Shown: piece after piece, positions 12,934-52,549 of the stretch
How positions within the stretch are numbered: the stretch's first letter is position 1
How the letters are laid out: every line of letters begins with the position of its first letter
Assembly: GCF_900117415.1 (NCBI RefSeq)
Contig: NZ_FPEI01000004.1
Coordinates: 992,001-1,056,000 of the forward strand
Source of the DNA: Hyphomicrobium sp. CS1BSMeth3
Lineage (GTDB): Bacteria > Pseudomonadota > Alphaproteobacteria > Rhizobiales > Hyphomicrobiaceae
Length of the DNA stretch: 64,000 bases
Direction of reading: 5' to 3'
The notes under the pieces: model-generated
Seen by the model: the letters and a program-made list of their open reading frames with translations, nothing else
Databases searched by the model: none
What the model was told of the DNA's origin: nothing
Position numbers and translations under genes: made by a program

Positions 12934-13063
12934 CTAGTGTGATGATCGAGAAATTCGCCACTTGTCGCGGCACGCTATCGAGCGAATTTCTCGATCTGAA
13001 CCACACTAGCAAGACTACAATTCCAGTGTCCCTTTTGATCCCGAAGCTCGCTCGGGACACTAG
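12934..13063. repeat. Element A1: two-hairpin interspersed repeat, second hairpin truncated
   Basis: Hairpin 1 (12934-13009) has an 8-bp outer stem CTAGTGTG/CACACTAG, an internal loop, and a 14-bp inner stem ATCGAGAAATTCGC/GCGAATTTCTCGAT enclosing a loop with TCGCGGCA. After the spacer comes a shortened hairpin 2 whose arm and loop are deleted (AGTGTCCC to GGGACACTAG). The terminal CTAG supplies the TAG stop codon of the two-domain Usp gene on the minus strand. Confidence 0.85.
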
Positions 13064-13893
13064 TGCGACATCAGCGTGGGCACGGTCATGTGCCGCAGGA
13101 TATGGCGCGTGACGCCGCCGAACACCATCTCGCGCAGCCGCGAATAGCCGTAGGCACCCATGACCAGCAGGTCGGAGCCGTTGTCGGCGAGACGCGAGAG
13201 AATATCGTCGGCGACGCCGATCTCCTCGGCAACGGACTTCTGCACCGTAACCTTGACGCCGTGGCGCGACAGCGCCGCCGCGATCTGGGTGCCGGGCAAT
13301 TCGCCCGGCTCGGGCTCGGCCCCACCGCCGACGACACAGAGCAGCGTGACCACCTCGGCGCCCTTCAGCAGGGGCAGGGCATCGAACACGGCGCGCGCGC
13401 CCTCCCGCTTCCCGGACCAGGCGACCGTAACGCGCTTGCCGATCTCGCCATAGGTGCCGGCATAGGGCACGAGCAGCACGGGCCGCCCGCCCTCCATCAT
13501 GAGGCGCTCGGGAAAATCGAAGAGGCCTGAAAGCTCCCAGTCGGGATCGGTCTGGCTCGCGACAATGAGGTCCGAGGCGCGGGCGTGCTCGAGAACGGCG
13601 GACGGCAAATCGCCATCCTCGATCCTGAGCTCACGCCATTCGCTTACGAACGGCCGGTTGGCCACCGCAGTCTCGAACATTTCCTTGAGGTCCCTGACCC
13701 GCTGGCCTTCGGCTGCGATGATCGCCTCCACGTCGGCAGGCGCCATCATCGGTGCTGCAAACGAAAAGGTCGGGGTTGCATCGATGCCGATCAGGTGCGT
13801 GTTGAAACGCTCGGCAAGACGTCCGGCGACGCTCAGCAGCACCTTGGCGCGACCCGGATTGGAGATCTGCGTCGTAATGGTTTTCCAGGCCAT
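13060..13893 (-). CDS. Universal stress protein, tandem UspA domains
   Basis: The 277-residue protein has two Usp-like halves. The N-terminal half (MAWKTITTQISNPGRAKVLLSVAGRLAERF to GGRPVLLVP) lacks a clear G-2x-G-9x-G motif. The C-terminal half ends with LLVMGAYGYSRLREMVFGGVTRHILRHMTVPTLMSH, where GAYGYSR and GGVTR give a recognisable ATP-site pattern. The start at 13893 is chosen because the upstream extension is not Usp-like and gagaggtcggcccATG gives a ribosome site. Its stop codon lies in the end of repeat A1. Confidence 0.9.
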   Translation of the reverse strand: MAWKTITTQISNPGRAKVLLSVAGRLAERFNTHLIGIDATPTFSFAAPMMAPADVEAIIAAEGQRVRDLKEMFETAVANRPFVSEWRELRIEDGDLPSAVLEHARASDLIVASQTDPDWELSGLFDFPERLMMEGGRPVLLVPYAGTYGEIGKRVTVAWSGKREGARAVFDALPLLKGAEVVTLLCVVGGGAEPEPGELPGTQIAAALSRHGVKVTVQKSVAEEIGVADDILSRLADNGSDLLVMGAYGYSRLREMVFGGVTRHILRHMTVPTLMSH

Positions 13894-14076
13894 GGGCCGA
13901 CCTCTCCGCTTTTGTCGCAATTGCGCGTGACATGAACATTGAACGGCGCGCGTCCGGCCGCCTTGACACGCATCAAGGCAGTCCGACGCCAGTACGTATG
14001 TATGGAACATAGGAGCGCGCCGGCCAGTTCCAAGCCGGCGGCGCGCCTGCCAATGCACACGCCGAGGGGGCCCCGA

Positions 14077-14406
14077 ATGCTTCGTCAAGCGAGAGCCGAC
14101 GTCCTGGCGGCCATCGTGCTTTCACGCCCGCTCGGCATTTGCGCCATTGCCGTCGCCCTTCTTGTGCTCGGCACGACGATCGCGCGCACGACGGAGTCGT
14201 GGGAGGTCCTGCTGCGGCACCAGCTTCAGGAGCAGCAGCGCTGCGCCCTCGACAAGGTCCTCATGGTGCGCGAGGTGCCGGTCGGCAATATCGTCGGCCT
14301 TGAAGGCCGCATCCGCTGTGCGGATACGCGCGAGTTCGATTTCAAGCGCGAGCGCGAGAACGAGCGTTTCACGATCCGCCTCTGCGAGCCCGTCAACGTG
14401 TGCTGA
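14077..14406 (+). CDS. Membrane-anchored protein with periplasmic Cys-containing domain, function unknown
   Basis: The 109-residue protein begins at the ATG at 14077 behind gaggggg. It has one N-terminal transmembrane segment (about residues 17-34, PLGICAIAVALLVLGTTI), then a charged domain (SWEVLLRHQLQEQQRCALDK, VGLEGRIRCADTREFDFKRERENERF) ending IRLCEPVNVC. Four Cys in the exported part could form two disulfides. It converges on dcd with 16 bp between stops. I do not recognise a family; expression as a single gene is likely. Confidence 0.65.
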   Translation: MLRQARADVLAAIVLSRPLGICAIAVALLVLGTTIARTTESWEVLLRHQLQEQQRCALDKVLMVREVPVGNIVGLEGRIRCADTREFDFKRERENERFTIRLCEPVNVC

Positions 14407-14422
14407 GCGCACACGAAAGCGA

Positions 14423-15544
14423 TCAAACCCGGAAGTGCTTCGAGAGCTTCAGGCCCTGCGCCTGATAGTGCGAGCCGAGATCCGTGCCGTACAGCACGCT
14501 CGGCACCGCCGTCATGCGCTCGTAGATGAGCCGGCCGATGATCTGCCCATCCTCGAGAATGAAGGGCACTTTGTGGCTGCGCACCTCGAGCACGACGCGC
14601 GCGCCCGCGCCGCCGGCCGGCGCGTGACCAAAGCCCGGATCCATGAAACCCGCATAGTGCACGCGGAACTCGCCGACGAGCGGATTGAAAGGCATCATCT
14701 CGGCCGCATGTGTCGGCGGCACGTGCACGGCTTCCTTGGAAGCGAGAATGTAGAACTGGTCAGGATCGAGGATCAGGCGCTGGCTGTCGCCGACGACGAT
14801 CGGCTCCCAGTAGTCGGCGAGCGGACAGGAGCCCGGTGCGTCGACATCGACGAGGCCCGTGTGGCGCCGCGCACGATAGCCGATGAGACCCTTGCTCTCG
14901 CCGACGAGATCGACCGAGAGCGCGATGCCGCCGCGAACATCGGCCGCCGCACCGCCGCGCACGAGCGTGACCTTCTTGTGCAGGGCTTCGAGCGCATCGT
15001 CCGTCTCGACGGGATCGCCCGCGCGAAAGCGGATCTGGCTGAGCATGGAGCCGCGGCGCACGACAATCGGGAAAGTCTGCGGGCAGATCTCGGCATAGAG
15101 CTGGCCGGCATAGCCCGCAGGGATCGTGTCGAAGGACGAGACGCCATCCGCGATCACGCGCGTGAAGACATCGAGCCGGCCCGTCGAGCTTTTCGGATTG
15201 GCGGCGGCGGCGATGTCCGCCGGCAGTGCGAGGCGCTCCTGCAGCGGCACGACATAGACGCAGCCCGTTTCGAGGACGGCGCCGGAACTGAGGTCGATCT
15301 TGTGGAGCGACAGCTCCTTGAGGCGATCCATGACGTTCGTGCGGCCGCCCGGGCCACCAGGCAGAAAGCTCGCCCTGACGCGATAGGCGACGTCGCCGAG
15401 ACGGAGATCGAGGCTCGCCGGCTGGATCTGGGTCGGCGCGAAGGCGCGCTCCGCATGGATCGCCCCCGACACGACCAGGGCGCGGATGTCCTGAATAGGC
15501 AGAATTCCTGCCCGCTGACTGGGCTTCGCGCGCGCTTTCGGCAT
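14423..15544 (-). CDS. dcd: dCTP deaminase, long alphaproteobacterial type
   Basis: The 373-residue enzyme deaminates dCTP to dUTP for thymidylate synthesis. It is the long form found in alphaproteobacteria, about twice the length of the E. coli enzyme and consisting of two dUTPase-like folds. Motifs include PASLDLRLGDVAYRVRASFL near the start, NPKSSTGRLDVFTRVI (the S-x-x-GR substrate site, about residue 115), GYAGQLYAEICP, and in the second half VHYAGFMDPGFGHAP and EVRSHKVPFILEDGQIIGRLIYERM. The ATG at 15544 has gagggag upstream. Repeat A2 starts 14 bp upstream of this start, so it forms the 5' leader or promoter region. Confidence 0.93.
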   Translation of the reverse strand: MPKARAKPSQRAGILPIQDIRALVVSGAIHAERAFAPTQIQPASLDLRLGDVAYRVRASFLPGGPGGRTNVMDRLKELSLHKIDLSSGAVLETGCVYVVPLQERLALPADIAAAANPKSSTGRLDVFTRVIADGVSSFDTIPAGYAGQLYAEICPQTFPIVVRRGSMLSQIRFRAGDPVETDDALEALHKKVTLVRGGAAADVRGGIALSVDLVGESKGLIGYRARRHTGLVDVDAPGSCPLADYWEPIVVGDSQRLILDPDQFYILASKEAVHVPPTHAAEMMPFNPLVGEFRVHYAGFMDPGFGHAPAGGAGARVVLEVRSHKVPFILEDGQIIGRLIYERMTAVPSVLYGTDLGSHYQAQGLKLSKHFRV

Positions 15545-15557
15545 AGGAGCTCCCTCA

Positions 15558-15725
15558 CTAGTGTGGTGGTTCCGAAGTCCGCCATCCCCTTCGCGGCAGG
15601 TGTCGGAGGCGGACTTCGGAAGCTGAACCACACTAGAAGCATAGACTTGCTAGTGTCCTTTCGATCGCGAAGTTCGTTCGAGAGCCCGCCACAGATGGTG
15701 ACGAACTTCGCGATCGGGACACTCG
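15558..15725. repeat. Element A2: two-hairpin interspersed repeat, most divergent stems
   Basis: Hairpin 1 (15558-15636) keeps CTAGTGTG/CACACTAG but has a different 14-bp inner stem, TTCCGAAGTCCGCC/GGCGGACTTCGGAA, fully paired. Its loop still contains TCGCGGCA. After a 13-nt spacer, hairpin 2 (15650-15725) has outer CTAGTGTCC/GGGACACT and inner stem ATCGCGAAGTTCGT/ACGAACTTCGCGAT. The element lies between divergent dcd and metZ. Confidence 0.88.
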
Positions 15726-15796
15726 TGCCGCTCGCGCATAGCCCATCCACCCATTGACGCCAAGCCCGAGGATGCGATAATCCGCGTCTCAGACGT

Positions 15797-15846
15797 CGTG
15801 GTGATTTGGCCGGCCGGCTTGCAGCCACGTAAAACAACTCGCTAAA
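15797..15846 (+). promoter_or_regulatory. SAM-II riboswitch aptamer upstream of metZ
   Basis: The sequence matches the SAM-II (metA motif) consensus. P1 is CGTGG (15797-15801) with CCACG (15825-15829); it is followed by TGATTTGG, a GGCCGGCCGGC run, the invariant CTTGCAGCCACGT, and CTCGCTAAAA at the 3' end. The pseudoknot strand is GATTT (15803-15807) against AACTC (15836-15840), leaving one T-C mismatch where I recall AAGTC in the usual consensus. It should bind S-adenosylmethionine and lower metZ expression when SAM is plentiful. Confidence 0.93.
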
Positions 15847-15858
15847 AGGGCCGTGCGG

Positions 15859-15920
15859 AACCGGTTTCCTGGTCGCGCCCGGCACATGCGGGTGACCACG
15901 AGGCCGGTTTTAGTTTTCTT
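15859..15920 (+). terminator. Conditional terminator between SAM-II aptamer and metZ
   Basis: A long hairpin (AACCGG at 15859-15864 with CCGGTT at 15904-15909, TGGTC with GACCA inside, and a GC inner stem) is followed by ttagttttctt. It lies between the aptamer and the metZ ribosome site (caggaga), so control by transcription termination is likely. Confidence 0.75.
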
Positions 15921-15959
15921 GGGGGCGCCCCGCGTGTCCCGCCGACAGGAGACCCGCAG

Positions 15960-17171
15960 ATGGCAGACCCCGTCCCCCCGTCCATCCCCGCCGAGTGGAG
16001 CCCCGAGACCGTCCTCGTCCATGGCGGCACGATGCGCTCCCCCTTCGGCGAGACCTCCGAAACGCTCTACCTGACACAGAGCTACATCTACGGGACGGCC
16101 GAGCAGGCCGAGGCCCGTTTCAAGGATGAGGAGCCGGGCTTCATCTACTCGCGCTTCTCGAACCCGACCGTGGCCATGCTGGAAGAGCGCATCCGCCTGC
16201 TCGAAGGCGCGGAAGCGGCGCGCGCGACGGCGACGGGCATGGCGGCGGTGACCTCCGCGCTGCTGAGCTATCTCAGTGCCGGCGATCACGTCGTCGCGGC
16301 AAAGGCGCTCTTCGGCTCCTGTCGCTATGTCGTCGAGGAGCTTTGTCCGCGCTTCGGCATTTCCTGCACGCTCGTCGACGGCACGGACCTCGCCGCATGG
16401 AAGAAGGCCATCACGCCGAAGACCAAAGCCGTCTTCTTCGAGACGCCGGCCAATCCGACGCTCGATCTGGTCGACATCCGCGCCGTCTCGGATCTCGCGC
16501 ACGCCGTCGGCGCGCTCGTCTTCGTCGACAACGTCTTCGCGACGCCCCTCATGCAGAAGCCGCTCGCACTCGGCGCCGACGTCGTCGTCTACTCCGCGAC
16601 CAAGCACATTGACGGCCAGGGCCGCTGCCTCGGCGGGCTCATTCTCTGCTCGGCGCAGTTCCTCAAGGACTATCTCCAGGTCTTCCTGCGCCAGACAGGG
16701 CCATCCATGAGCCCGTTCAATGCCTGGGTACTCCTGAAAAGCCTCGAGACGCTGCCCGTGCGCGTGCGCGCGCAGTGCACCGCCGCCGCCGAGATCGCGG
16801 CTACGCTCGAGACGAAACCCGGCATCACGCGCGTCCTCTACTGCGGCAGCAAGAACCATCCGCAGGCGGAGCTCGCCCGCAAGCAGATGAGCGGCGGCGG
16901 CCAGGTCGTGACCTTCGAGGTCGCGGGCGGCAAGGCGGCGGCATTCCGCTTCCTGAATGCGCTGAAGATCATGAAGATCTCGAACAATCTGGGGGACGCA
17001 AAAAGCATCGTCACGCATCCGGCGACCACGACGCACCAGCGTCTCAAGCCCGAAGCCCGTGCCGAGCTCGGCATCAGCGACGGCATGATCCGCCTCTCCG
17101 TGGGCCTCGAAGCGCCGGTCGATCTCCTCGCGGACCTCGATCGCGGTCTGGCAGCCATGCGCGCGGGGTGA
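15960..17171 (+). CDS. metZ: O-succinylhomoserine sulfhydrylase
   Basis: The 403-residue PLP enzyme of the Cys/Met-metabolism family makes homocysteine from O-succinylhomoserine and sulfide in direct-sulfurylation methionine synthesis. Visible signatures: VHGGTMRSPFGETSETLYLTQSYIY, YSRFSNPTV, the PLP lysine in VVYSATKHIDGQGRCLGG (about residue 213), and the C-terminal SNNLGDAKSIVTHPATTTHQR with GLEAPVDLLADL. Length and motifs are closest to MetZ rather than MetB. caggagacccgcagATG gives the start. Expression should be repressed by SAM through the upstream SAM-II element. Confidence 0.96.
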   Translation: MADPVPPSIPAEWSPETVLVHGGTMRSPFGETSETLYLTQSYIYGTAEQAEARFKDEEPGFIYSRFSNPTVAMLEERIRLLEGAEAARATATGMAAVTSALLSYLSAGDHVVAAKALFGSCRYVVEELCPRFGISCTLVDGTDLAAWKKAITPKTKAVFFETPANPTLDLVDIRAVSDLAHAVGALVFVDNVFATPLMQKPLALGADVVVYSATKHIDGQGRCLGGLILCSAQFLKDYLQVFLRQTGPSMSPFNAWVLLKSLETLPVRVRAQCTAAAEIAATLETKPGITRVLYCGSKNHPQAELARKQMSGGGQVVTFEVAGGKAAAFRFLNALKIMKISNNLGDAKSIVTHPATTTHQRLKPEARAELGISDGMIRLSVGLEAPVDLLADLDRGLAAMRAG

Positions 17172-17257
17172 CGAAAGGCCTGATCGGTGGACAATGGCGG
17201 TCCGGTCTGCTCGAATATGACCGGACAAAGCCCGCCACTGAATCCAGGGAAATGATC

Positions 17258-18097
17258 ATGAATGCGATCGATCCGCCGGCCACGGCGCAGGCGCGCGCGC
17301 TTGCCGCGCGCTACGGCACGGAGCCCAAGCCGGGCCAGCTTCCCTGGAACGATGTCATCGCGAGCCTGATGGGCCATCGCTCCGTGCGCGGCTATCAGAC
17401 GACCCCGCCACCGCCCGGCACGCTCGAGATCCTGATCGCTGCCGCGCAGTCGGCTGCGACGAGCTCGAACCTGCAGACGTGGTCGGTGATGGAGGTCACG
17501 GATCCCGAGAAGCTGAAGGTGCTGGCCGAGGTCGCCAACGGGCAGAAGCACATCATCGAGTGCCCGATCTTCCTCGTGTTCATCGCCGATCTCTCGCGCA
17601 ACGAGCGCCTCGGCAAGGCCGAGGGCGCGACGCTCGAGGTCCTCCCCTATCTCGATGCTTTCCTCGTCGCTTCGATCGACGCGGCCATGGCGGCCCAGAA
17701 CGCCGTTATCGCGGCGGAGTCGCTCGGCCTCTCGACGGTCTACATCGGCGCGCTGCGCAACAACGTCACGCGGGTCGCGGAGCTGCTTGAGCTGCCCTCG
17801 GGCGCCGGCCCCGTGTTCGGCCTCTGCATCGGCTACGCGAAGCCCGAGTCGGCCGGCGAGGTGAAGCCGCGCCTGCCGCAGGAAGTCGTGCTGCACCATG
17901 ACCGCTACTCGACGGCGGGCGAGACTGAAGCACGCGCCACCTACGACAAGCGGCTCGAAGCCTTCTCGCGCCGCCACGAGATGGCGGCCTACACGTGGAC
18001 ACAGCGCGTCATCAATCGCATGGCCAAGCTCAATGCGCTCACCGGCCGCGATCGGATGAAGGACGCCTTCAAGGCTCTCGGTTTCCCGCTGCGCTAA
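17258..18097 (+). CDS. Nitroreductase-family FMN oxidoreductase (NADPH-dependent, NfsA-like)
   Basis: The 279-residue flavoprotein carries the nitroreductase fold: HRSVRGYQTTPPPPGTLEILIAAAQSAATSSNLQTWSVMEV near residue 35 (FMN phosphate and ring contacts R-x-x-R, SSN), PYLDAFLVASIDAAMAAQNAVIAAESLGLSTVYIGALRNN near 150, and VFGLCIGYAKPESAGEVKPRLPQEVVLHHDRY near 210. It probably reduces nitro compounds or quinones with NAD(P)H. The ATG at 17258 has aggga 7 nt upstream; an ATG two codons earlier (17252) is too close to that site. It follows metZ by 86 bp. Confidence 0.9.
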   Translation: MNAIDPPATAQARALAARYGTEPKPGQLPWNDVIASLMGHRSVRGYQTTPPPPGTLEILIAAAQSAATSSNLQTWSVMEVTDPEKLKVLAEVANGQKHIIECPIFLVFIADLSRNERLGKAEGATLEVLPYLDAFLVASIDAAMAAQNAVIAAESLGLSTVYIGALRNNVTRVAELLELPSGAGPVFGLCIGYAKPESAGEVKPRLPQEVVLHHDRYSTAGETEARATYDKRLEAFSRRHEMAAYTWTQRVINRMAKLNALTGRDRMKDAFKALGFPLR

Positions 18098-18130
18098 GAG
18101 CGCTCGCGGGACATAGCGGGGGCTCGCCCC

Positions 18131-19654
18131 ATGACCACCACGACCGGGCATGATGTCCCGGCAATCGAGTTGACGGTCGCCCGGCGTCAGCTCGTGCTGT
18201 TCGTGGTGGTGCTGAGCTCGGCGGTCTACAACGCCGCGACCTTCACCGCGACGGCGATCCTGCCGCAAATGCAGGGCGCCATGGCCGCGACCCAGGACGA
18301 GATCTCCTGGGTGGTCACCTTCAACATCCTCGCGACGGCCGTCGTCACCCCCATGACGGGGTGGCTCGTCGCTTCGTTCGGCCGCCGCAATGTCATGTTC
18401 TGGAGCCTTGCGGGCTTCACCCTGGCCTCGCTGCTCTGCGGGCTGGCACGCGGGCTCGATGATCTCGTGCTCTGGCGCGTGCTTCAGGGCGCGGCCGGCG
18501 CACCGATGCTGCCGCTCGGCCAGACGCTCATTCTCGACGTCTTCCCCAGGCACCAGCATCCGAAAGCGATCGCCATCTTCGGCATGGCGAACACGGCGGG
18601 GCCGATCATCGGGCCGATGCTTGCCGGCGTCCTATCCGACTATTACGGCTGGCGGTGGGGCTTCTACATGATCGTGCCGGTGGCGCTCCTCGCAACCATC
18701 GGCGCGCGCCTGATCCTGCCCCAGGACGACTCGCGCCGGCCGACCTCGCTCGACTGGACGGGCTTTCTCTCGCTCTCCATCGCCATCGCGGCCATGCAGA
18801 TCATCCTCGCGCGCGGCCAGCGCCTCGATTGGTTCGAGTCGACCGAGATCATCGTCGCAACCTTCATCGGCGTCGTCGCCTTCTACCTCTTCGTCGTCCA
18901 CAGCCTCACGGCGCGGAAGCCTTTCCTCGACCTGCGCATCCTGCTCGACCGCAACTTCGCGATCGGGCTGCTGCTCGTCGGCATGTTCGGCATGGTGAAC
19001 TTCACGCCGATGGTCCTGCTGCCGCCGCTGCTCCAGGCTCACCTCGGCTACACGGACCGTCTCATCGGCCTGATGGTCGGCTGGCGCGGCGTCGGCGTCG
19101 CAGCCGGCTTCTTCCTCGTCATGATGATGGGACGCCTCGACCCGCGCGTGACCATGATCATCGGCTTCGGCGTCCAGATCCTTTCGGGCCTGTGGCTCAT
19201 GGCGATCACGCTCGACGCCGACTTCGCGACCTTTGCCCTCAACGCATTCCTCCAGGGCACGGCGGTGGGCCTAATCTGGGCCCCGATCGCGACGACGGCA
19301 TTCTGGACGCTGCCCGCGGCCTCGCGCGCCGAGGCGACCTCGGTCTTTCATCTCACGCGCAACATCGCCTCGAGCTTTTTCATCTCGATCTGTGTTGCCG
19401 AGGTCGTTCGAGCCACGGGCGCCAACTACAGCCGCCTCGTCGAGAACGTCACACCCTACAGCAAGCAGCTCCTGCTCGGACCGGCCATGAGCGGATGGAA
19501 CGTCGAGACACTCTCGGGCCTCGCCTCGCTCTCCAAGGAGATCAACCGACAGGCGGCGCTGATCGCCTACACGAACGTTTTCTACATCTACACGTTGATC
19601 TCGCTCACCGCGATCCCGCTCGCCCTGCTGGTGAGGCGGGCCCAGAGCCGGTGA
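18131..19654 (+). CDS. DHA2-family MFS multidrug exporter (EmrB/QacA-like)
   Basis: The 507-residue protein has 14 predicted transmembrane segments, the DHA2 number. Motif A is GWLVASFGRRNVMFWSLAGF (about residue 76), the motif C-like segment is FGMANTAGPIIGPMLAGVLSD, and the start AVYNAATFTATAILPQMQG has the usual DHA2 D1-like layout. It would export drugs or lipophilic compounds by proton antiport. No EmrA-like membrane-fusion partner or TetR/MarR regulator is next to it. It starts 33 bp after the nitroreductase and may share its transcript. Repeat A3 follows 46 bp after the stop. Confidence 0.93.
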   Translation: MTTTTGHDVPAIELTVARRQLVLFVVVLSSAVYNAATFTATAILPQMQGAMAATQDEISWVVTFNILATAVVTPMTGWLVASFGRRNVMFWSLAGFTLASLLCGLARGLDDLVLWRVLQGAAGAPMLPLGQTLILDVFPRHQHPKAIAIFGMANTAGPIIGPMLAGVLSDYYGWRWGFYMIVPVALLATIGARLILPQDDSRRPTSLDWTGFLSLSIAIAAMQIILARGQRLDWFESTEIIVATFIGVVAFYLFVVHSLTARKPFLDLRILLDRNFAIGLLLVGMFGMVNFTPMVLLPPLLQAHLGYTDRLIGLMVGWRGVGVAAGFFLVMMMGRLDPRVTMIIGFGVQILSGLWLMAITLDADFATFALNAFLQGTAVGLIWAPIATTAFWTLPAASRAEATSVFHLTRNIASSFFISICVAEVVRATGANYSRLVENVTPYSKQLLLGPAMSGWNVETLSGLASLSKEINRQAALIAYTNVFYIYTLISLTAIPLALLVRRAQSR

Positions 19655-19700
19655 CAGAGGACGATGGGATGGTGAGGCATGTTGGCGGTGGACGCGGGAC

Positions 19701-19867
19701 CTAGTGTCCCGATTCCGAAGTTCGCTTTACCTCGAAGCCGGTGTCGAGAGCGAACTTCGGAATCAAAAGGGACACTAGAATCATGGCTTTGCTAGTGTGA
19801 TTCAGATCGAGAGGTTCGCTCAATACCGTGCCGCGACATCTGGCGAACTTCTCGACCATCACACTAG
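19701..19867. repeat. Element A3: two-hairpin interspersed repeat, inverted orientation
   Basis: The order is reversed relative to A1, A2, A4 and A5. Hairpin 2 comes first (19701-19778, outer CTAGTGTCCC/GGGACACTAG, 15-bp inner stem with core TTCCGAAGTTCGCT), then a 13-nt spacer, then hairpin 1 (19792-19867, outer CTAGTGTG/CACACTAG, inner TCGAGAGGTTCGC/GCGAACTTCTCGA with one G-T pair). All four hairpin ends are intact CTAG. Confidence 0.88.
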
Positions 19868-19921
19868 CGCGTTTAAGATCGCGCCCGGTGGGATCTGACG
19901 CGGCTCGAAAACAGAGAAAGC

Positions 19922-20743
19922 ATGGGCCCATTCGATAGACTGCTCGATCGGTTCGGCCACTGGCTCGCAGGGCGCCTCGAAAGCGAGACGCCGGGCGAAG
20001 AGCCGTTCATTCCTACGGACCGGGAGGCGCTCCGGCGCACGCTGCGAACGGGTGACGTCCTTCTCGTCGCGGGCGGCAGCACGCTCTCGACGGCCATCAA
20101 GTACCTGACGCAATCGACATGGTCGCACGCCGCGCTCTACGTCGGCGACGTGCTCGACCAAACGGCGGGGAATGGCGAGCCGCACGTGCTGATCGAGGTC
20201 ACCGCAACGGAAGGTTGCGCCTCGGCACCGCTCTCGAAGTACGAGCGCTTTCATACGCGCATTTGCCGGCCGATCGGCCTCACGGAGGCCGATCGCGAGG
20301 CGCTCGTCACGTTCATGATCTCGCGGCTCGGCGCCAAGTACGACATGCGCAACATCTTCGATCTTGCGCGCTATCTGCTGCCAACACCGCCGGTGCCGGC
20401 GCGCTTCCGCCGTCGCATGATCGCGCTCGGGTCCGGCGAACCAACGCGCACGATCTGCTCGACGCTCATTGCGGAGGCCTTCGGCCGCATCGCGTATCCC
20501 ATCCTGCCGCGCGTCGAGCTCCTGATGGATGAAAAAGGTGGCATCACCCGTTTTCGCCAGCGCGAGATCCTGCACATCCGCCACTACAGCCTCTATGCCC
20601 CCGCCGATTTCGACCTCTCGCCCTATTTCGACATCGTGAAGCCCACGATCTCTGAAGGCTTCAACTACAAGGGCCTGAGATGGGCCAGCGACGACCAGGG
20701 CCCCGCCAAGATGACCGAGACCAGCCGCAGCCGCAGCGCCTAG
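19922..20743 (+). CDS. Permuted papain-fold (NlpC/P60-like, YiiX/YebB-type) cysteine hydrolase
   Basis: The 273-residue protein carries the motif order of circularly permuted NlpC/P60 enzymes. The His comes first, in GDVLLVAGGSTLSTAIKYLTQSTWSHAALYVG (about residue 69), with the acidic IEVTATEGCASAPLSKYE next, and the Cys later in RTICSTLIAEAFGRIAYP (about residue 180). Such enzymes act on peptides, amides or lipids; the substrate here is unknown. There is no signal peptide, so it is probably cytosolic or membrane-associated. agagaaag precedes the ATG. It lies 41 bp before the serine hydrolase gene. Confidence 0.82.
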   Translation: MGPFDRLLDRFGHWLAGRLESETPGEEPFIPTDREALRRTLRTGDVLLVAGGSTLSTAIKYLTQSTWSHAALYVGDVLDQTAGNGEPHVLIEVTATEGCASAPLSKYERFHTRICRPIGLTEADREALVTFMISRLGAKYDMRNIFDLARYLLPTPPVPARFRRRMIALGSGEPTRTICSTLIAEAFGRIAYPILPRVELLMDEKGGITRFRQREILHIRHYSLYAPADFDLSPYFDIVKPTISEGFNYKGLRWASDDQGPAKMTETSRSRSA

Positions 20744-30257: not shown

Positions 30258-30372
30258 CCCTCTCCCCGCTTGCGGGGAGAGGGTTAGGGTGAGGGGCGGC
30301 GGCAAACGCCGAGGTTGAACAAGCTCCCGCCCCTCATCCTAACCTTCTCCCCGTGAAGAACGGGGAGAAGGG
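30258..30372. repeat. Element B1: paired GC-rich palindromic repeat
   Basis: Two head-to-head units: CCCTCTCCCCGC/GCGGGGAGAGGG hairpin (30258-30283), then TTAGGGTGAGGGGCGG, a short middle, and the inverted CCGCCCCTCATCCTAACC followed by a CTTCTCCCCGT/ACGGGGAGAAG hairpin. The same layout recurs at 49370-49490 and 62876-62973. Confidence 0.8.
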
Positions 30373-44743: not shown

Positions 44744-44751
44744 CGCATGAG

Positions 44752-44780: not shown

Positions 44781-44870
44781 GAAACTTTGGCTGCCGGCGC
44801 GTCTCGATTGTGCCGGCTCCTGTGAGCGATGCGCTGCGCGCGATCCGAGGGCGTGCGAGGGGGTGGGCGA

Positions 44871-46795: not shown

Positions 46796-46821
46796 ACGGC
46801 CGCCCCTAGCCCCGCGCCGCG

Positions 46822-46987
46822 TCGCGTGATGATCGGGAAATTCGCCTCATCTCGCGGCCCGGTACCGAGCGAATTTCTCGATCTGAAGCACGCGAGCAGG
46901 TTTGTGCTTCTAGTGTCCCTATTGTTTCCGAAGTTCGCTCAGAACGCCGGCATCGGGGTGGGGCGAACTTCGGAATCGGGACACTAG
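46822..46987. repeat. Element A4: two-hairpin interspersed repeat with compensated outer stem
   Basis: Hairpin 1 (46822-46896) has outer TCGCGTG/CACGCGA in place of TAGTGTG/CACACTA, two changes that are compensated on the opposite arm. Its inner stem is ATCGGGAAATTCGC/GCGAATTTCTCGAT (one G-T) and its loop TCGCGGC. A 13-nt spacer leads to hairpin 2 (46910-46987), outer CTAGTGTCCC/GGGACACTAG and inner TTCCGAAGTTCGC/GCGAACTTCGGAA. Beyond it, to 47138, the leader of the mutase gene holds a small CTGTGGTgaaACCACAG hairpin (47086-47102). Confidence 0.88.
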
Positions 46988-47138
46988 CGCCTTGACTTCC
47001 GGGGGCGAAAGGCGCCATCGATCCGTCCGAAATCGGACCTATAACCCCAAACGCGATTACTGGGTCGGAATGCCGTCGCCCGGCTCTGTGGTGAAACCAC
47101 AGGCCGGGGTGCGCGTTCCTGACGAGGAAAACGATCAT

Positions 47139-48641
47139 ATGATGCTGCCGAAGCCCCGCCCCGACCTGAAACCCAATACGCCCGAGTTCGAAACCCTGCC
47201 CCTCGTGAAGCCGACCGGCTTTCGCGAGTATGACGCGCGCTGGCTCTTTCCCAATGAGATCAACCTCATGGGTCTCAATGCCATCGGGCTCGGGCTTGCG
47301 GCGCTCTTCCGCCGGCGCGGCGTGCCGCTGCGCATCGTGACGGGCCACGATTATCGCTCCTACTCCGCCTCAGTGAAGCAGGCGCTGATCACCGGCCTCC
47401 TCGCGGGCGGCACCGAGGTGCACGACATCGGCCTCGCGCTCTCGCCTATGGCCTACTTCGCGCAGTTCGATCTCGATGTGCCGGGCGTCGCCATGGTCAC
47501 GGCGAGCCACAACGACAATGGCTGGACCGGCATCAAGATGGGCCTCGCCCGGCCGCTCACGTTCGGCCCCGACGACATGAGCGAGCTGAAGGAGATCGTG
47601 CTCTCCGGCAACTATGACGCCCCCGGCGGCGGCCGCTATATCTTCGTGCCCGACATGGCCGAGCGCTACATGAAGGCGCTGGCGAACCGGCCGAAGCTGA
47701 AGCGCAAGCTGAAGGTCGTGTGCGCGTGCGGCAACGGCACGGCCGGCGCCTTTGCCCCGAAAGTGCTGGAGGCCCTCGGCTGCGAGGTCGTCCCGCTCGA
47801 CTGCAATCTCGACCACAGCTTCCCGCGCTACAACCCCAATCCCGAAGACCTCGAGATGCTGCACGCCATGAGCGCGGCCGTGCTCGAGCATAAGGCCGAT
47901 GTCGGCCTCGGCTTCGACGGTGACGGCGATCGCTGCGGCGTCGTCGACAACGAGGGCCACGAGATCTTCGCCGACAAGGTCGGCGTCATGCTTGCGCGTG
48001 ACCTCTCGGCCCTGCATCCGAACGCGGTCTTCGTCGCTGACGTCAAGTCGACCGGCCTCTTCCTGACCGATCCCGTGCTCAAGAAGAACGGCGCCAAGGC
48101 CCTCTACTGGAAGACCGGCCACTCCTACATGAAGCGCTACACGCACGAGCAGAAGGCGCTCGTCGGCTTCGAGAAGTCGGGCCACTTCTTCTTCCAGCCG
48201 CCGCTCGGGCGCGGCTATGACGACGGTCTCGTCGCGGCGCTGGCCGTTTGTGACATGCTCGACCGGAGTCCGAGCAAGACCATGGCCGATCTCCAGCGCG
48301 ACCTGCCGCAGACCTGGCAGTCGCCGACCATGTCGCCCCACTGCGCCGACGAGAAAAAATACGGCATCGTCGAGAAGATGGTGAAAACCTACCAGGATGC
48401 GGCCGCCAAGGGCGAGAAGATCGCCGGCCAGGCGATCCGCGACCTCATCACCGTCAACGGCGTGCGCGTGGTGCTGGAGGACGGCACCTGGGGTCTCGTC
48501 AGGGCTTCGTCCAACAAGCCCGAGCTGGTCGTGGTCGTCGAGAGCCCGACCTCCGAGGCGGCCCAGCGCGCCATTTTCGCCGACATCGACGGGCGGCTGC
48601 GCGCCTTCCCCGAAGTCGGCGAATATAATCAGAAAATCTGA
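47139..48641 (+). CDS. manB: Phosphomannomutase / phosphoglucomutase (alpha-D-phosphohexomutase)
   Basis: The 500-residue enzyme interconverts hexose 1- and 6-phosphates for exopolysaccharide, LPS or glycogen supply. It shows the active-site phosphoserine in GVAMVTASHNDNGWTGIKMG (about residue 125), the metal loop VGLGFDGDGDRCGVVD (about 258), the sugar loop VGFEKSGHFFF (about 345) and the phosphate-binding loop near GLVRASSNKPELVVVVE. The ATG at 47139 (or 47142) follows gacgagga; earlier codons are not conserved-looking. Whether it prefers mannose or glucose phosphates is not determined. Confidence 0.92.
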   Translation: MMLPKPRPDLKPNTPEFETLPLVKPTGFREYDARWLFPNEINLMGLNAIGLGLAALFRRRGVPLRIVTGHDYRSYSASVKQALITGLLAGGTEVHDIGLALSPMAYFAQFDLDVPGVAMVTASHNDNGWTGIKMGLARPLTFGPDDMSELKEIVLSGNYDAPGGGRYIFVPDMAERYMKALANRPKLKRKLKVVCACGNGTAGAFAPKVLEALGCEVVPLDCNLDHSFPRYNPNPEDLEMLHAMSAAVLEHKADVGLGFDGDGDRCGVVDNEGHEIFADKVGVMLARDLSALHPNAVFVADVKSTGLFLTDPVLKKNGAKALYWKTGHSYMKRYTHEQKALVGFEKSGHFFFQPPLGRGYDDGLVAALAVCDMLDRSPSKTMADLQRDLPQTWQSPTMSPHCADEKKYGIVEKMVKTYQDAAAKGEKIAGQAIRDLITVNGVRVVLEDGTWGLVRASSNKPELVVVVESPTSEAAQRAIFADIDGRLRAFPEVGEYNQKI

Positions 48642-48772
48642 GCCCCGGCGGGCCGCCGCGGCCCGCCCCTTCGGCAAGTCACAACTTCGTGCGGTGCGGC
48701 ATCCGGCCTGCAGGGCTGCATGGCGGCTGGCGGTCTTTGACTGTGATCGCCGATGGTGTAGCAAAAGAAGCC

Positions 48773-49363
48773 ATGGAACGCACCGCCACGCGCCCGACGA
48801 CGCTGACGACGCTGCCGAACGTCCTGACCTACGGGCGGATTGTTGCCGTACCGCTGATGGCAGCGTGTTTCCTCCTGCTCGAAGGCGACAATGCCCATTG
48901 GGCCGCCCTCTCGATCTTCACGCTTGCCTGCCTGACCGACTGGCTCGACGGCTATCTCGCGCGCATTCTCGCGCAGCAGTCGACCCTCGGGCGGATGCTC
49001 GACCCGATCGCCGACAAGCTGCTGGTCGGCACCGCGCTCCTGCTGCTCGTCAATGACGGGACCATCGACTACATCACCATCTGGGCGGCCATCATTATTC
49101 TCTGCCGCGAGATCCTCGTCTCGGGCCTGCGCGAGTACCTGGCCGAGCTGAACGTCAAGGTGCACGTCACGCGCCTCGCCAAGTGGAAGACCACCGTGCA
49201 GATGCTGGCCCTCGGCGTGCTTCTGGCTGGCCCGGCAGGCGAAAAGCTCATTTCGGGCGTGACGCTGACCGGCACCATGCTTTTGTGGGCAGCGGCCCTG
49301 TTGACGCTCTGGACCGGCTACGACTACCTCAAGGCCGCAGTGCGCCACGCCATAGACAATTGA
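48773..49363 (+). CDS. pgsA: CDP-diacylglycerol--glycerol-3-phosphate 3-phosphatidyltransferase
   Basis: The 196-residue membrane enzyme makes phosphatidylglycerolphosphate. It shows TTLPNVLTYGRIVAVPLMAACFLL and the CDP-alcohol phosphotransferase motif D-G-x2-A-R-x8-G-x3-D-x3-D in LTDWLDGYLARILAQQSTLGRMLDPIADKLLVG (about residues 61-93). It has about four to five transmembrane segments and ISGVTLTGTMLLWAAALLTLWTGYDYLK at the end. It lies upstream of moaD with repeat B2 between. Confidence 0.95.
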   Translation: MERTATRPTTLTTLPNVLTYGRIVAVPLMAACFLLLEGDNAHWAALSIFTLACLTDWLDGYLARILAQQSTLGRMLDPIADKLLVGTALLLLVNDGTIDYITIWAAIIILCREILVSGLREYLAELNVKVHVTRLAKWKTTVQMLALGVLLAGPAGEKLISGVTLTGTMLLWAAALLTLWTGYDYLKAAVRHAIDN

Positions 49364-49369
49364 AGTTTT

Positions 49370-49490
49370 CCTTCTCCCCGTTCTTACGGGGAGAAGGTTA
49401 GGATGAGGGGCGGCGGCATACGCAAGCGCTTGCGCAAACTCCCGCCCCTCACCCCGGCCCTCTCCCCATTGAAGGAATGGGGAGAGGGGG
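49370..49490. repeat. Element B2: paired GC-rich palindromic repeat
   Basis: Same design as B1: CCTTCTCCCCGT/ACGGGGAGAAGG hairpin, TTAGGATGAGGGGCGG, a middle with AAGCGCTT, the inverted CCCGCCCCTCACCCCGG, and CCCTCTCCCCATT/AATGGGGAGAGGG. It starts 7 bp after pgsA and its G-rich end continues into the moaD Shine-Dalgarno. Confidence 0.8.
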
Positions 49491-49500
49491 AAGGAAGTCC

Positions 49501-49758
49501 ATGACCGTAACACTTCGCTATTTCGCCTGGCTGCGCGAACGGGTCGGCCGCTCCGAGGAGGTGCTGGACGTCCCGCGCGGGGTCACGACCGTCGCCGATC
49601 TCATCGGATGGCTGCAAACGCGCGGTCCCGAGTATGCCTCGGCCTTCGAGCGCGCCGAGGTCATCCGCGCCGCCATCGACCACGCCCACGTCCGCCAGGA
49701 AGCCCCCATTGCCGGCGCGCGCGAGATCGGCTTCTTCCCGCCCGTCACGGGAGGATGA
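49501..49758 (+). CDS. moaD: Molybdopterin synthase sulfur-carrier subunit
   Basis: The 85-residue ubiquitin-like protein has the beta-grasp start MTVTLRYFAWLRERVGRSEEVLDVPRGVTTVADLIGWL, the conserved NxxE-equivalent region AAIDHAHVRQEAPIAGAREIGFFPPVTGG, and the C-terminal Gly-Gly that carries the thiocarboxylate donated to cPMP by MoaE. aaggaag before the ATG is at the end of repeat B2. It is followed 4 bp later by moaE, its enzyme partner. Confidence 0.93.
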   Translation: MTVTLRYFAWLRERVGRSEEVLDVPRGVTTVADLIGWLQTRGPEYASAFERAEVIRAAIDHAHVRQEAPIAGAREIGFFPPVTGG

Positions 49759-49762
49759 GCTA

Positions 49763-50221
49763 ATGAGCGTCTCCGTCCAGGCCGAGGATTTCGATATCAC
49801 TCGCGAGGTCGCGGCCCTCACGAGCGGCCGCACGGACATCGGCGCGATCGTCACGTTCACGGGCACCGTACGCGGGAAGAATGAGGGCGCGGAACTCTCC
49901 TCCATGACGCTCGAGCACTATCCCGGCATGACCGAGGCGGAGCTTGCCCGCGTCGAGGCCGAGGCGCACGCCCGCTGGCCGCTGCAGGGAACGCGCATCG
50001 TCCATCGCATCGGTACGCTCGCACCCGGCGAGAACATCGTGCTGGTCGTCACGGCATCAGCGCACAGGCACGCCGCATTCGAGGCCGCCGCCTACCTCAT
50101 GGACTACCTCAAATCCCGCGCCCCCTTCTGGAAGAAGGAAACGGACGCGAGCGGCGCCGGCCGCTGGGTCGATGCGCGCGAGAGCGATGACGCCGCGCTT
50201 GAGCGGTGGAAGGCGCGCTAG
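49763..50221 (+). CDS. moaE: Molybdopterin synthase catalytic subunit
   Basis: The 152-residue enzyme converts cPMP to molybdopterin with MoaD as sulfur donor. Motifs: DIGAIVTFTGTVRGKNEGAELSSMTLEHYPGMTEAELARVEAEAHARWPLQGTRIVHRIGTLAPGENIVLVVTASAHRHAAFEAAAYLMDYLKSRAPFWKKE (catalytic Lys and the R/H-containing loop, with HRIG at the dimer interface). gggagga from the end of moaD serves as the ribosome site. Confidence 0.95.
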   Translation: MSVSVQAEDFDITREVAALTSGRTDIGAIVTFTGTVRGKNEGAELSSMTLEHYPGMTEAELARVEAEAHARWPLQGTRIVHRIGTLAPGENIVLVVTASAHRHAAFEAAAYLMDYLKSRAPFWKKETDASGAGRWVDARESDDAALERWKAR

Positions 50222-50225
50222 AGTC

Positions 50226-50380
50226 CAAAAAAGAGGGGGTCCGGGGGATACTTCCCCCGGCGGGGGTGCGGGGCGCGAGCCCCGCTCGCGAAGCGATCAC
50301 TATTCGCGCCTGCGACGCGAAAGGGGCTGCCGCCCCTTCAACCCCGCCCGGGGGACACCCCCGGAGCCCCCGTCTTTTTG
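50226..50380. repeat. Element C2: G-rich palindromic repeat (inverted copy of C1 type)
   Basis: AAAAAAGAGGGGGTCCGGGGG at the left and CGGAGCCCCCGTCTTTTTG at the right frame GGGGCGCGAGCCCC, TCGCGAAGCGA, CGCGCCTGCGACGCG and AAGGGGCTGCCGCCCCTT palindromes. The right end, read backwards, matches C1 at 30404. It separates convergent moaE and ftsI and probably acts as a terminator for both. Confidence 0.65.
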
Positions 50381-50385
50381 AGACT

Positions 50386-52089
50386 TCAATTCGCGCCCGC
50401 GACACGATCCGGCAGCAGGTCCAGCATCGGACCGATGCGCGCAATGAGGCGTGCGGTCATCGGCGCCGCATTGAGACCCGCCGTGATCTTGCCCTTGGTC
50501 TCCGCGGTCCCTTGCGGCTCGAAGAGTGACAGCAGCAGCACATAGCGCGGCGCCGATGCCGGCAGCACGGCGAAGAACGACGAGATGACCGTCTTTTCCT
50601 TGTAGCCGCCTTTCCCAGGCTGCTCGGCCGTGCCCGTCTTGCCGCCGATCTCGTAGCCCTCCAGCTCCGCGCGACGCCCCGTGCCGTGCTGGTTGATCAC
50701 GGCCTGGCGCAAGGCCTCGCGGATGGCGGCGCTGGTGGCTGGCGAGACGACGCGCGCCTCACCCGACGGCACGGCCTCCTGCCGGATCATCGTCGGGCGC
50801 ACCTTGATCCCGCCATTGACGAGCCCGGCGGCTGCAGCCGCGAACTGCAGCGGTGCAACCGCAAGACCGTGGCCATAGGCGATCGTCACACCCTCGAGTG
50901 AGCCCCAGTGCGAAGGGAGCAGCGGCTTCGCCACGGGGCCCGCCTCAGTGCGGATCGTATCGAGCAGGCCGAGGCGATCGAGGAAGGCGCGCTGACGCGC
51001 CACGCCGGCTTCCATGGCGATGAGGCCTGCGCCGACGTTCGACGAGCGAACGAGAATTTCAGCAAGTGTCAGCGGGCGGCCGGGCGGATACTGCTCCGCG
51101 ATCGTGTAGCGGCCGAAGCGCAGGGGCTCGCGCGTGTCGTAAATGCGCGTGAGCGAGGCGCCGAGATCATCGAGCGCCAGGCCGAGCGTGACGGTCTTCG
51201 CGATCGAGCCGAGCTCGAACACGCCGGCCATGACGCGGTCCTTGCGGTCGTCGTCATCGGCGCCGGAGAACTTTTGCGGGTCCTGGTCGGGCAGCGATAC
51301 GGAAGCGATGATCTCGCCGCTTGCCGCATCGAGGATCACGCCGGAGGCTCCCTGCGCCTTGTACTGCTTCATGGCATCGGCGAGCGTATCGGCAACGGCA
51401 TTCTGCACGCCGAGATCGATCGAGAGACGCACCGGCTCACGCTGCGAGCGCCGCGGTGCTGCAGCCGCGTCCGTCTCGCCGATCTCGTCGATATGCCGCT
51501 CAATGCCTGAAATGCCGCGGTTGTCGACGTCGACATGACCGATGATATGCGAGGTCAGGTAGCGCGTCGGGTACACGCGGCGCGGCTCGCGACGGAAACC
51601 GAGACCGGGAATGCCGAGGTCGTGCGCGCGTTGTGCCTCGATGGGCGTCAGGCCGCGCTTGATCCACATGAAACGGCGCGTGCTGTCGGCAAGATGGCGG
51701 CGGAGCTCTGTGGCATCGAGCTCGGGAAAGAGCGCCACGAGCTTCTCCGCCGTCAGGTCGGCATCGCGAACCATGGCCGGATCGGCGAACAGCGATGCTG
51801 CATCGACATCGGTCGCGAGCAGGTTTCCGCGCCGGTCGACGATATCGGGGCGGATATAGGTCTGATGGAGCGGCTCGGCGCGCGCGAGCCGCGTCTCCGT
51901 CTCGCCGCTCGCCGCGAGCCGTACGGTCTGGCCGGCAATGGCAATGAAGACCGCGGCGATCGCAGCATGCATGAGCCACGTGCGCTCGCGCGGCAGCTCG
52001 ATGTGTGCGCCGTGGCCGGAAGCGCGCGGCGCACCGGACCGCGCCGCCAGCGCGGGCCCGACACGTAGCGGTTCAGGCCTCCGTTTCAT
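50386..52089 (-). CDS. ftsI: Peptidoglycan D,D-transpeptidase FtsI (PBP3)
   Basis: The 567-residue septal transpeptidase has an N-terminal membrane anchor (about 40-58, MHAAIAAVFIAIAGQTVRL) and a dimerisation/pedestal domain (RRGNLLATDVDAASLFADP, YPTRYLTSHIIGHVDVDNRGISGIE). The transpeptidase domain has SxxK at 295-298 (SIAK), SSN at 349-351 and KTG at 484-486. It belongs to the division complex and overlaps ftsL by 4 bp. murE would normally follow, but repeat C2 and moaE lie there, so the usual dcw order is interrupted after ftsI. Confidence 0.96.
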   Translation of the reverse strand: MKRRPEPLRVGPALAARSGAPRASGHGAHIELPRERTWLMHAAIAAVFIAIAGQTVRLAASGETETRLARAEPLHQTYIRPDIVDRRGNLLATDVDAASLFADPAMVRDADLTAEKLVALFPELDATELRRHLADSTRRFMWIKRGLTPIEAQRAHDLGIPGLGFRREPRRVYPTRYLTSHIIGHVDVDNRGISGIERHIDEIGETDAAAAPRRSQREPVRLSIDLGVQNAVADTLADAMKQYKAQGASGVILDAASGEIIASVSLPDQDPQKFSGADDDDRKDRVMAGVFELGSIAKTVTLGLALDDLGASLTRIYDTREPLRFGRYTIAEQYPPGRPLTLAEILVRSSNVGAGLIAMEAGVARQRAFLDRLGLLDTIRTEAGPVAKPLLPSHWGSLEGVTIAYGHGLAVAPLQFAAAAAGLVNGGIKVRPTMIRQEAVPSGEARVVSPATSAAIREALRQAVINQHGTGRRAELEGYEIGGKTGTAEQPGKGGYKEKTVISSFFAVLPASAPRYVLLLSLFEPQGTAETKGKITAGLNAAPMTARLIARIGPMLDLLPDRVAGAN

Positions 52090-52364
52090 TTGTGCCGCTC
52101 ACCTGCTGCAGTCAGCGGCTCGTACTGGCGCGGCTCGATGGGGCCGAGGCCGATCTTGCGGGCCATCTCCTCGATGCGCTCGGGGCGCGCGAGATAGGCG
52201 CGCTCGGCGCGGAGCACGGCAATGTCGAGGCGTGTCTTTTCGATCGTCCGCGCCTGGGCGGCGACATGCTGCTCCAGACGCCGTGTTTCGTACGTCACGG
52301 CGTAGAGCACGAACGCCGAAGCGACCGCGAGCAGCACAGTGGCGACTGCGGCGAGACGGGGCAT
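52086..52364 (-). CDS. ftsL: Cell-division protein FtsL-like
   Basis: The 92-residue protein has one N-terminal transmembrane helix (about 3-22, LAAVATVLLAVASAFVLYAV), then a coiled-coil-forming stretch (TRRLEQHVAAQARTIEKTRLDIAVLRAERAYLARPERIEEMARKIGL) ending GLGPIEPRQYEPL. Position between rsmH and ftsI, size and the L-R-A-E/P-x-R-I-x-x-x-A pattern identify FtsL, the bitopic partner of FtsB. gaggag upstream sets the ATG at 52364. Repeat A5 fills the gap to rsmH. Confidence 0.88.
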   Translation of the reverse strand: MPRLAAVATVLLAVASAFVLYAVTYETRRLEQHVAAQARTIEKTRLDIAVLRAERAYLARPERIEEMARKIGLGPIEPRQYEPLTAAGERHK

Positions 52365-52381
52365 GGCACCACTCCTCAACG

Positions 52382-52549
52382 CTGGTGTGATGATCGAGAA
52401 ATTCGCCAAGCCTCGCGGCACCCTTCCGCGCGAATTTCTCGATCTGAATCACACCAGCAAAGCTACAATTCTAGTGTCCCTTTTGATTCAGAAGTTCGCT
52501 CGGATCGCCAGCATCAAAGGTGGGGCGAACTTCTGAATCGGGACACTAG
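52382..52549. repeat. Element A5: two-hairpin interspersed repeat inside the dcw operon
   Basis: Hairpin 1 (52382-52457) has outer CTGGTGTG/CACACCAG (an A-G change compensated by T-C on the other arm) and inner ATCGAGAAATTCGC/GCGAATTTCTCGAT, loop with TCGCGGCA. A 13-nt spacer leads to hairpin 2 (52471-52549), outer CTAGTGTCCC/GGGACACTAG and inner ATTCAGAAGTTCGC/GCGAACTTCTGAAT. It lies between rsmH and ftsL; its CTAG end supplies the rsmH stop codon and it reaches to 18 bp before the ftsL start. Confidence 0.9.

What the first reader, a model, noticed from the sequence alone, without database searches (positions are those of the whole stretch)
12934..52549. Family A: five copies of a double-hairpin interspersed element with compensatory stem changes
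Seen: five intergenic copies (12934-13063, 15558-15725, 19701-19867, 46822-46987, 52382-52549) of a 166-168 bp element (130 bp in the truncated copy). Each is hairpin 1 (outer CTAGTGTG/CACACTAG), a 13-nt spacer (like CAAAGCTACAATT), then hairpin 2 (outer CTAGTGTCCC/GGGACACTAG). Stems vary but stay paired: A4 has TCGCGTG/CACGCGA, A5 has CTGGTGTG/CACACCAG, and A2 has an unrelated 14-bp stem, TTCCGAAGTCCGCC/GGCGGACTTCGGAA. The hairpin 1 loop keeps TCGCGGC(A) in all five. Paired changes with a fixed loop suggest selection on structure, as RNA or as cruciform DNA. I do not recognise the family. At one copy per about 13 kb a genome could hold hundreds; this is extrapolation.
Basis: partly seen in the sequence, partly recalled or inferred. 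Interest (0 to 1): 0.82.

Follow-up and report, generated by a model that had tools for sequence, protein, structure and literature searches.

The report
Mobile double-hairpin DNA repeat of alphaproteobacteria
The five repeats are copies of a short jumping DNA element, found across many alphaproteobacteria, that keeps the shape of two hairpins while its letters change; it looks like mobile DNA rather than a working RNA, and what moves it is unknown.

Summary
Confirmed: all five copies exist. The genome (G000, 6.02 Mb) holds at least 114 places of the family, 94 full length. Corrections: A3 runs on the minus strand; A2 belongs to a second subfamily; the loop motif, kept in these five, is in 39 of 94 copies; the count is about a hundred, not hundreds.

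The family is class-wide: 56 of 103 genomes of the family, 58 of 397 sampled from the order, 16 genomes outside the order. It has two bulged hairpins around a spacer like CAANNNNATGATT and CTAG ends, mostly 163-170 bp. Stem covariation is very strong (289 double-change cells, 79.5 shuffled). G-T and A-C mismatches are equally common (61:60 here, 13:14 across genera): no RNA wobble signature. Bulge conversions and loop inversions show one arm templating the other.

Copies are insertions (empty sites), repeatedly at a CTAG stop codon. RAYT transposase was not found here and is not associated elsewhere. Closest known kind: two-hairpin CIR/RIME1/Bru-RS repeats; homology with CIR and Bru-RS was not testable. 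Mobiliser unknown.

The parts
12934..13063 (+). copy A1, 130 bp: hairpin 1 complete, hairpin 2 cut short by an internal deletion; its right CTAG holds the stop codon (13060-13062, minus strand) of the gene at 13060-14088
   Evidence: empty in G001, G002, G003, G004, whose gene ends at the same codon (read by eye)
15558..15725 (-). copy A2, second subfamily (inner stem TTCCGAAGTCCGCC); canonical strand set by the spacer CAAGTCTATGCTT
   Evidence: empty in G001 and G003, 54 nt of other sequence in G002
19701..19867 (-). copy A3, full length, reverse orientation
   Evidence: empty in G001, G003, G004
46821..46987 (+). copy A4, full length, outer stem changed on both sides (TCGCGTG/CACGCGA)
   Evidence: empty in G003, no element in G001
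52382..52549 (+). copy A5, full length; its right CTAG holds the TAG stop (52546-52548, minus strand) of the gene 52546-53592 (rsmH by my reading)
   Evidence: filled in G001, empty in G002, G003, G004 with CTAG kept there
52382..52457 (+). A5 hairpin 1: 10-bp outer stem, 15-bp inner stem, 3-nt bulge on the 3' arm
52458..52470 (+). A5 spacer (CAAAGCTACAATT); commonest class-wide form CAANNNNATGATT
52471..52549 (+). A5 hairpin 2: outer stem CTAGTGTCCC/GGGACACTAG, TTTT bulge on the 5' arm, 15-bp inner stem

Best explanation
A non-autonomous mobile DNA element made of two bulged hairpins in inverted order around a conserved spacer. It inserts preferentially at CTAG tetranucleotides, repeatedly the CTAG that holds a gene's TAG stop codon, which leaves the gene whole. 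Shown: copy number, architecture, insertion at sites empty in relatives, several exact placements at stop codons, class-wide spread, no gene of its own. Inferred: that an enzyme acting in trans recognises the folded hairpins together with CTAG, and that one hairpin arm templates the other during DNA synthesis, so that the two arms change together while stem sequences drift between lineages.
For: Copies: 94 full, 114 places. Insertion: all 14 own places (full or partial) with both flanks found in the searched parts of relatives are empty in at least one relative; two (A5, C1_55595) are filled in G001. Target: A5's three empty sites keep CTAG; A1's four orthologues stop at the same codon; rsmH ends in TAG at the same place in the relatives. 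On one opened Roseibium plasmid the annotated SDR gene stops in the element's CTAG, and the gene without the element stops at the same place in Paracoccus (in a CTAG), Sulfitobacter and Azospirillum; in Agrobacterium T29 an annotated gene stops in the right CTAG. By my own gene finder 20 of 71 gene 3' ends lie exactly there, 3 one base off, 2 in the other frames. DNA level: G-T 61, A-C 60. Templating: bulge conversions in 5 of 94 copies, 4 inverted loops. A second element of the same build sits in a family A CTAG. Tandem copies share one CTAG.
Against: No mobiliser found: no PF01797 or PF13358 in the genome, no gene beside more than 10 of 125 loci from other genomes. Left and right 4-mers match no more often than shuffled (53 against 49.7), so a 4-bp duplication is not shown. 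Empty sites of A3 and A4, and the G003 site of A2, lack CTAG. Of four annotated plasmid copies opened, two (Aminobacter, Acidiphilium) are not at a stop codon. A plain open-frame test gives only weak enrichment (43 of 143 against 77 of 376). Relatives are about 80% identical, so exact junctions are uncertain.
Confidence: 0.66

Rival explanations
1. A structured RNA (small RNA, UTR element or terminator) whose stems are kept by selection on the transcript.
For: Strong stem covariation, stems more conserved than loops; 67 of 94 copies lie between tandem genes.
Against: G-T equals A-C on the canonical strand, 61:60 and 13:14. Only 2 of 93 placed copies lie between convergent genes against 31 of 264 neighbouring gene pairs in the same loci, P 0.002 (the background comes from loci chosen for holding copies). 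No Rfam family at gathering score. Expression was not testable here.
Confidence: 0.08
2. A REPIN/BIME moved by a RAYT (REP-associated tyrosine transposase).
For: Inverted pair of bulged hairpins with a 4-nt tag, as in REP pairs.
Against: PF01797 in 0 of 5 genomes of the genus; in the family it is in 7 of 56 element-bearing and 7 of 47 element-free genomes, Fisher P 0.78 (many are drafts). Hairpins 76-79 nt rather than 20-40 bp.
Confidence: 0.05
3. A MITE cut from an IS630/Tc1-type or other DDE transposon, with TA duplicated inside CTAG.
For: The nested family B insertion reads CTA-element-TAG in an original CTAG; tandem copies share CTAG.
Against: DDE_3 (PF13358) in 1 of 5 genus genomes and not in the own one (other DDE families were not searched). 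A linear-end enzyme does not explain why each half is itself a bulged hairpin.
Confidence: 0.2
4. The element is itself a CIR, the CcrM-site intergenic repeat of Caulobacter and relatives (Chen and Shapiro 2003), in a longer form.
For: Same general plan: two arms, linker, TA at the termini, GANTC sites; GANTC 2.6 per copy against 0.13 expected; 117-133 bp forms in three genomes of other orders.
Against: CIRs are described as about 110 bp with GANTC at a terminal loop; here GANTC is at the spacer and in stems, and most forms are 163-170 bp. CIR sequences are not held, so homology was not tested.
Confidence: 0.2

Closest known systems
CIR (Caulobacter CcrM-associated intergenic repeats; Chen and Shapiro 2003, not held; seen through passages of PMC2229807)
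   Same: Two independent hairpin arms joined by a linker, GANTC sites, intergenic, alphaproteobacteria, TA at the termini, mobility mechanism unknown.
   Different: About 110 bp against 163-170 bp; GANTC at a terminal loop there, at spacer and stem here; homology untested.
RIME1 of Rhizobium (Osteras 1995, seen only in a reference list; its layout is recalled; a 106-bp two-hairpin repeat met in Aminobacter L345 is taken to be it)
   Same: Two palindromes with a linker, intergenic, many copies.
   Different: Different stems, linker and length; best BLAST match to family members a 9-nt word, E 1.8 (one presumed RIME1 copy).
Bru-RS1/2 of Brucella (Halling and Bricker 1994; seen in passages of PMC2267715 and PMC10800456)
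   Same: Repeated palindromic intergenic DNA of alphaproteobacteria.
   Different: 103-106 bp; sequences not compared.
REPINs/BIMEs and the CGTC palindromes of alphaproteobacteria (PMC3733652, passages); Br-REP1 and Br-REP2 of Bradyrhizobium (PMC5082802, passages)
   Same: Palindromes, some in inverted pairs, with a short terminal tag; CGTC repeats, too, are reported as not linked to transposase genes.
   Different: Units of 20-40 bp; tag GTAG or CGTC rather than CTAG; the printed Br-REP consensus sequences do not resemble this element (by eye).

Membership tests
REPIN/BIME | a RAYT (Y1 transposase) in the genome or associated with the repeats | tested here: not met
   0 of 5 in the genus; no association over 103 genomes; control rang in 5 of 14
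REPIN/BIME | 20-40 bp unit with a GTAG-type head | tested here: not met
   units 76-79 nt with CTAG
CIR | two hairpin arms joined by a linker, intergenic | tested here: met
   0 of 94 copies inside a predicted gene
CIR | GANTC (CcrM) sites | tested here: met
   91 of 94 own copies and 25 of 28 cross-genus representatives have one or more
CIR | about 110 bp, GANTC at a terminal loop | tested here: not met
   163-170 bp; GANTC at spacer and stems; 117-133 bp forms only in three genomes of other orders
CIR | sequence homology with CIR1-4 | not testable with these tools
   paper not held, no CIR sequence at hand
RIME1 | sequence homology | tested here: not met
   against one presumed RIME1 copy
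Bru-RS | sequence homology | not tested
   no Bru-RS sequence was fetched
IS630/Tc1-derived MITE | TA target duplicated | tested here: inconclusive
   nested case fits; A2 and A3 empty sites do not show TA at the junction
IS630/Tc1-derived MITE | matching transposase in the genome | tested here: not met
   no PF13358 in the own genome
Rfam RNA family | covariance-model match at gathering score | tested here: not met
   window; six loci, permissive

The most novel reading that the evidence does not exclude
A class-wide, single-strand-type transposition system without a known transposase: the 4-nt foot of each hairpin acts as a guide that pairs with the CTAG cleavage or target site (outer and inner 4-mers covary, for example outer CTCG with inner CGAG), the two bulges and the spacer are the main sequence-fixed contacts, and an as yet unidentified enzyme carries out the reaction, so that stems drift freely and lineages can retarget.
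Probability: 0.22. Interest if true: 0.85.

Novelty: new variant of a known kind. Interest (0 to 1): 0.62.

Why it matters
It is a very strong covariation signal that appears to arise in DNA, not RNA: a warning for RNA-motif searches and a clean case for a G-T against A-C test. It links scattered reports of two-hairpin intergenic repeats in alphaproteobacteria, suggests a target rule (CTAG, often a stop codon) that lets insertions spare genes, and poses a direct question: which enzyme moves an element found in several orders with no known transposase beside it?

Tried and rejected
RAYT/REPIN origin: rejected. RNA element: disfavoured. IS630 origin: no transposase of that family in the genome, left as a rival. 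Composite transposon with these ends: between four of five close pairs of copies lies one ordinary gene each (thioesterase, SDR, acetyltransferase, nitrile hydratase, by my reading of the translations), and the fifth pair leaves about 115 bp. Recurring neighbour: in 125 loci from other genomes the largest gene cluster touches 10 loci (ABC transporter by my reading), the next 5 (own loci not included). Direct repeats outside the element: none of 4 bp or longer in 94 copies. Phages: no match to A5 in 50,697 records; the exact inner-junction pattern is in 2 viral contigs. Plasmids: none with A5 and none, a few with other forms. A loop-loop kissing idea was looked at by eye and not tested. The ten paper searches showed no description of a 163-170 bp CTAG family in their listings and the passages read; the library holds open papers only, and Chen and Shapiro 2003 and Osteras 1995 were not read.

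Full report
OBSERVATION. The five copies were read directly. A de novo scan for two neighbouring hairpins finds exactly the four full copies in the window and none in three codon-block shuffles. A3 is in reverse orientation. A2 is a member of a second subfamily with relatives at G000:C5:297262 and C5:669631 (94% and 92%). In 2.08 Mb of fetched loci the scan gave 183 double hairpins; 180 match the family profile, one of these (a family B copy) only at 14.6 bits. The loci were mostly chosen for holding copies, so this is no frequency estimate.

COPY NUMBER. In the own genome BLAST lists 40 full-length or nearly full places, with 40 of 134 candidates scored. A pattern for one arm gives 100 forward and 94 reverse matches, 0 for the reversed control. 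The covariance model R1 gives 144 rows, many of them both strands of one copy, with 150 of 3846 candidates scored. nhmmer on the fetched loci gives 114 places, 94 of them full length. The median pairwise identity of the 94 is 83%. In the 89 standard copies stems vary 2-8% per site, loops about 21%, spacer 19%.

STRUCTURE. Each half has a 10-bp outer and a 15-bp inner stem. A 3-nt bulge on the 3' arm of hairpin 1 is present in 91 of 94 copies (in one of them matched by an insertion on the 5' arm), a 3-4 nt bulge on the 5' arm of hairpin 2 in 92 of 94. Hairpin 1 resembles the reverse complement of hairpin 2 (read), so the whole is an inverted pair.

COVARIATION. In 34 own copies 16 of 50 pairs change on both sides (shuffled 2.3). 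In 26 diverse representatives 98.0% of cells pair, 40 of 50 pairs change on both sides (shuffled 25.1), 289 cells do so (shuffled 79.5), and sliding the partner by one column drops pairing to 35-39%. Relatedness inflates such counts; up to five pair types per pair across genera make inheritance alone implausible.

DNA OR RNA. Mismatches were counted on the canonical strand. G-T against A-C: 61 against 60 in 89 standard copies, 63 against 65 in all 94, 13 against 14 across genera. A functional RNA on either strand should show an excess of its own G-U. In the 89 copies two-sided changes number 84 against 8.5 expected if sides were independent, 79 of them Watson-Crick; shared descent inflates this too. 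Five copies show bulge conversions that selection for pairing plus bulge would not favour: the bulge copied to the other arm (C2_1005576) or lost (C1_55595, C2_919708, C2_1849980, C4_273209). A sixth copy without the hairpin-1 bulge, C2_2419925, is a plain deletion. Four copies have a loop closer to the reverse complement of the consensus loop, three of them in the hairpin that lost its bulge. Arm-templated DNA synthesis is the simplest reading; that it drives all the covariation is inference.

MOBILITY. Flanks of own copies were searched in parts of congeners (about 80% identical): 400 kb each of G001 and G003 and small contigs of G002 and G004. Fourteen own places, five of them partial copies, had both flanks. 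All 14 are empty in at least one relative; A5 and C1_55595 are filled in G001.

TARGET. A5: three relatives without the copy keep CTAG at the junction, the TAG stop of the rsmH-like gene, which ends in TAG at the same place in the four relatives aligned. A1: four relatives end the gene at the same codon with TAA or TGA (by eye). On a Roseibium plasmid (one opened of nine that match) the annotated SDR gene ends inside the element's first CTAG. The gene in Paracoccus saliphilus ends GATCTAG at the same place with no element in the bases printed, and those of Sulfitobacter and Azospirillum end there with TGA. In Agrobacterium T29 an annotated gene ends in the right CTAG. Of four annotated plasmid copies opened, these two fit; Aminobacter and Acidiphilium do not. 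In the own genome my simple gene finder puts 20 of 71 gene 3' ends at exactly that overlap, 3 one base off, and 2 in other frames (binomial P 3e-8 for 20 of 22 at one third). A cruder open-frame test is weak (43 of 143 against 77 of 376). Empty sites of A3 and A4 show no CTAG. CTAG is rare (1.04 per kb against 3.24 from base composition, copies included). A nested insertion shows a second element of the same build (family B, similar spacer, different stems) inside a family A CTAG.

DISTRIBUTION. Genus 5 of 5; family 56 of 103 genomes in 20 of 25 genera; order sample 58 of 397, 46 of them outside the family, in 16 other families; class sample 17 of 385 including the own, 16 outside the order, three of those opened being only 117-133 bp with short loops. 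Those searches used strict filters, so they are lower bounds. Named carriers from one exact-pattern scan (84 stretches) include Hyphomicrobium, Methylocystis, Phyllobacterium, Mesorhizobium, Agrobacterium vitis, Devosia, Pseudolabrys, Rhodoplanes and one Caulobacteraceae MAG. An Acidiphilium plasmid copy folds into two CTAG-ended hairpins. Plasmid and viral finds are few for the forms tried.

MOBILISER. No Y1_Tnp in the genus; in the family 14 of 103 genomes have it at E 0.001 (13 over the cut-off), 7 of 56 carriers and 7 of 47 non-carriers. No DDE_3 in the own genome. No neighbour gene in more than 10 of 125 loci of other genomes.

RELATION TO KNOWN KINDS. A review (PMC2229807, passages) describes CIR elements as two arms joined by a linker, about 110 bp, with GANTC sites, TA at the termini, mechanism unknown. 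GANTC is enriched here too (2.6 per copy against 0.13 expected from the window; cross-genus 1.93 against 0.66 shuffled), but at the spacer junction and stems. The rhizobial 106-bp two-hairpin repeat beside the Aminobacter copy (taken to be RIME1) shares no sequence. I file the family as a new variant of the two-hairpin alphaproteobacterial repeats, not as a CIR.

Noticed in passing
window 15788-15866: SAM-II (SAM_alpha) riboswitch, 78.6 bits, before the gene 15960-17171 (sulfhydrylase-like by my reading), 62 nt from copy A2.
   Followed up: no
L046 4476-4642 (G000:C2), L032 2572-2735, L181 1349-1512 (G001): Family B: CTAAAGC...GCTTTAG ends, same two-bulged-hairpin build and similar spacer, different stems (one copy matches the family A profile weakly, 14.6 bits); one copy sits inside a family A CTAG.
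   Followed up: partly
window 30260-30354, 49374-49467: A different repeat around CCCCTCATCCTAACCTTCTCCCC; a further palindrome of similar make-up lies at 62876-62973.
   Followed up: no
C1_422334, C1_507554, C4_273209, C4_306163, C5_612049 and two partial copies (C1_32519, C1_70275): Hairpin 2 has a changed 3' arm (ACGGATAGGG or similar) that no longer pairs well, yet recurs in several copies.
   Followed up: no
L232-L311, Methylocystis MAG JADCCX01: Many contigs end within about 20-70 nt of the element's inner junction: assembly seems to break at nearly identical copies, a sign of a recent burst.
   Followed up: no
L345 about 1349-1455 (Aminobacter plasmid pSR3): A 106-bp two-hairpin repeat with GATTC in a loop; the 465-bp query holding it matches 323 plasmid records, mostly Rhizobium and Sinorhizobium.
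   Followed up: partly
G020, G032 and Mesorhizobium L272: Head-to-tail tandem copies that share exactly one CTAG.
   Followed up: no
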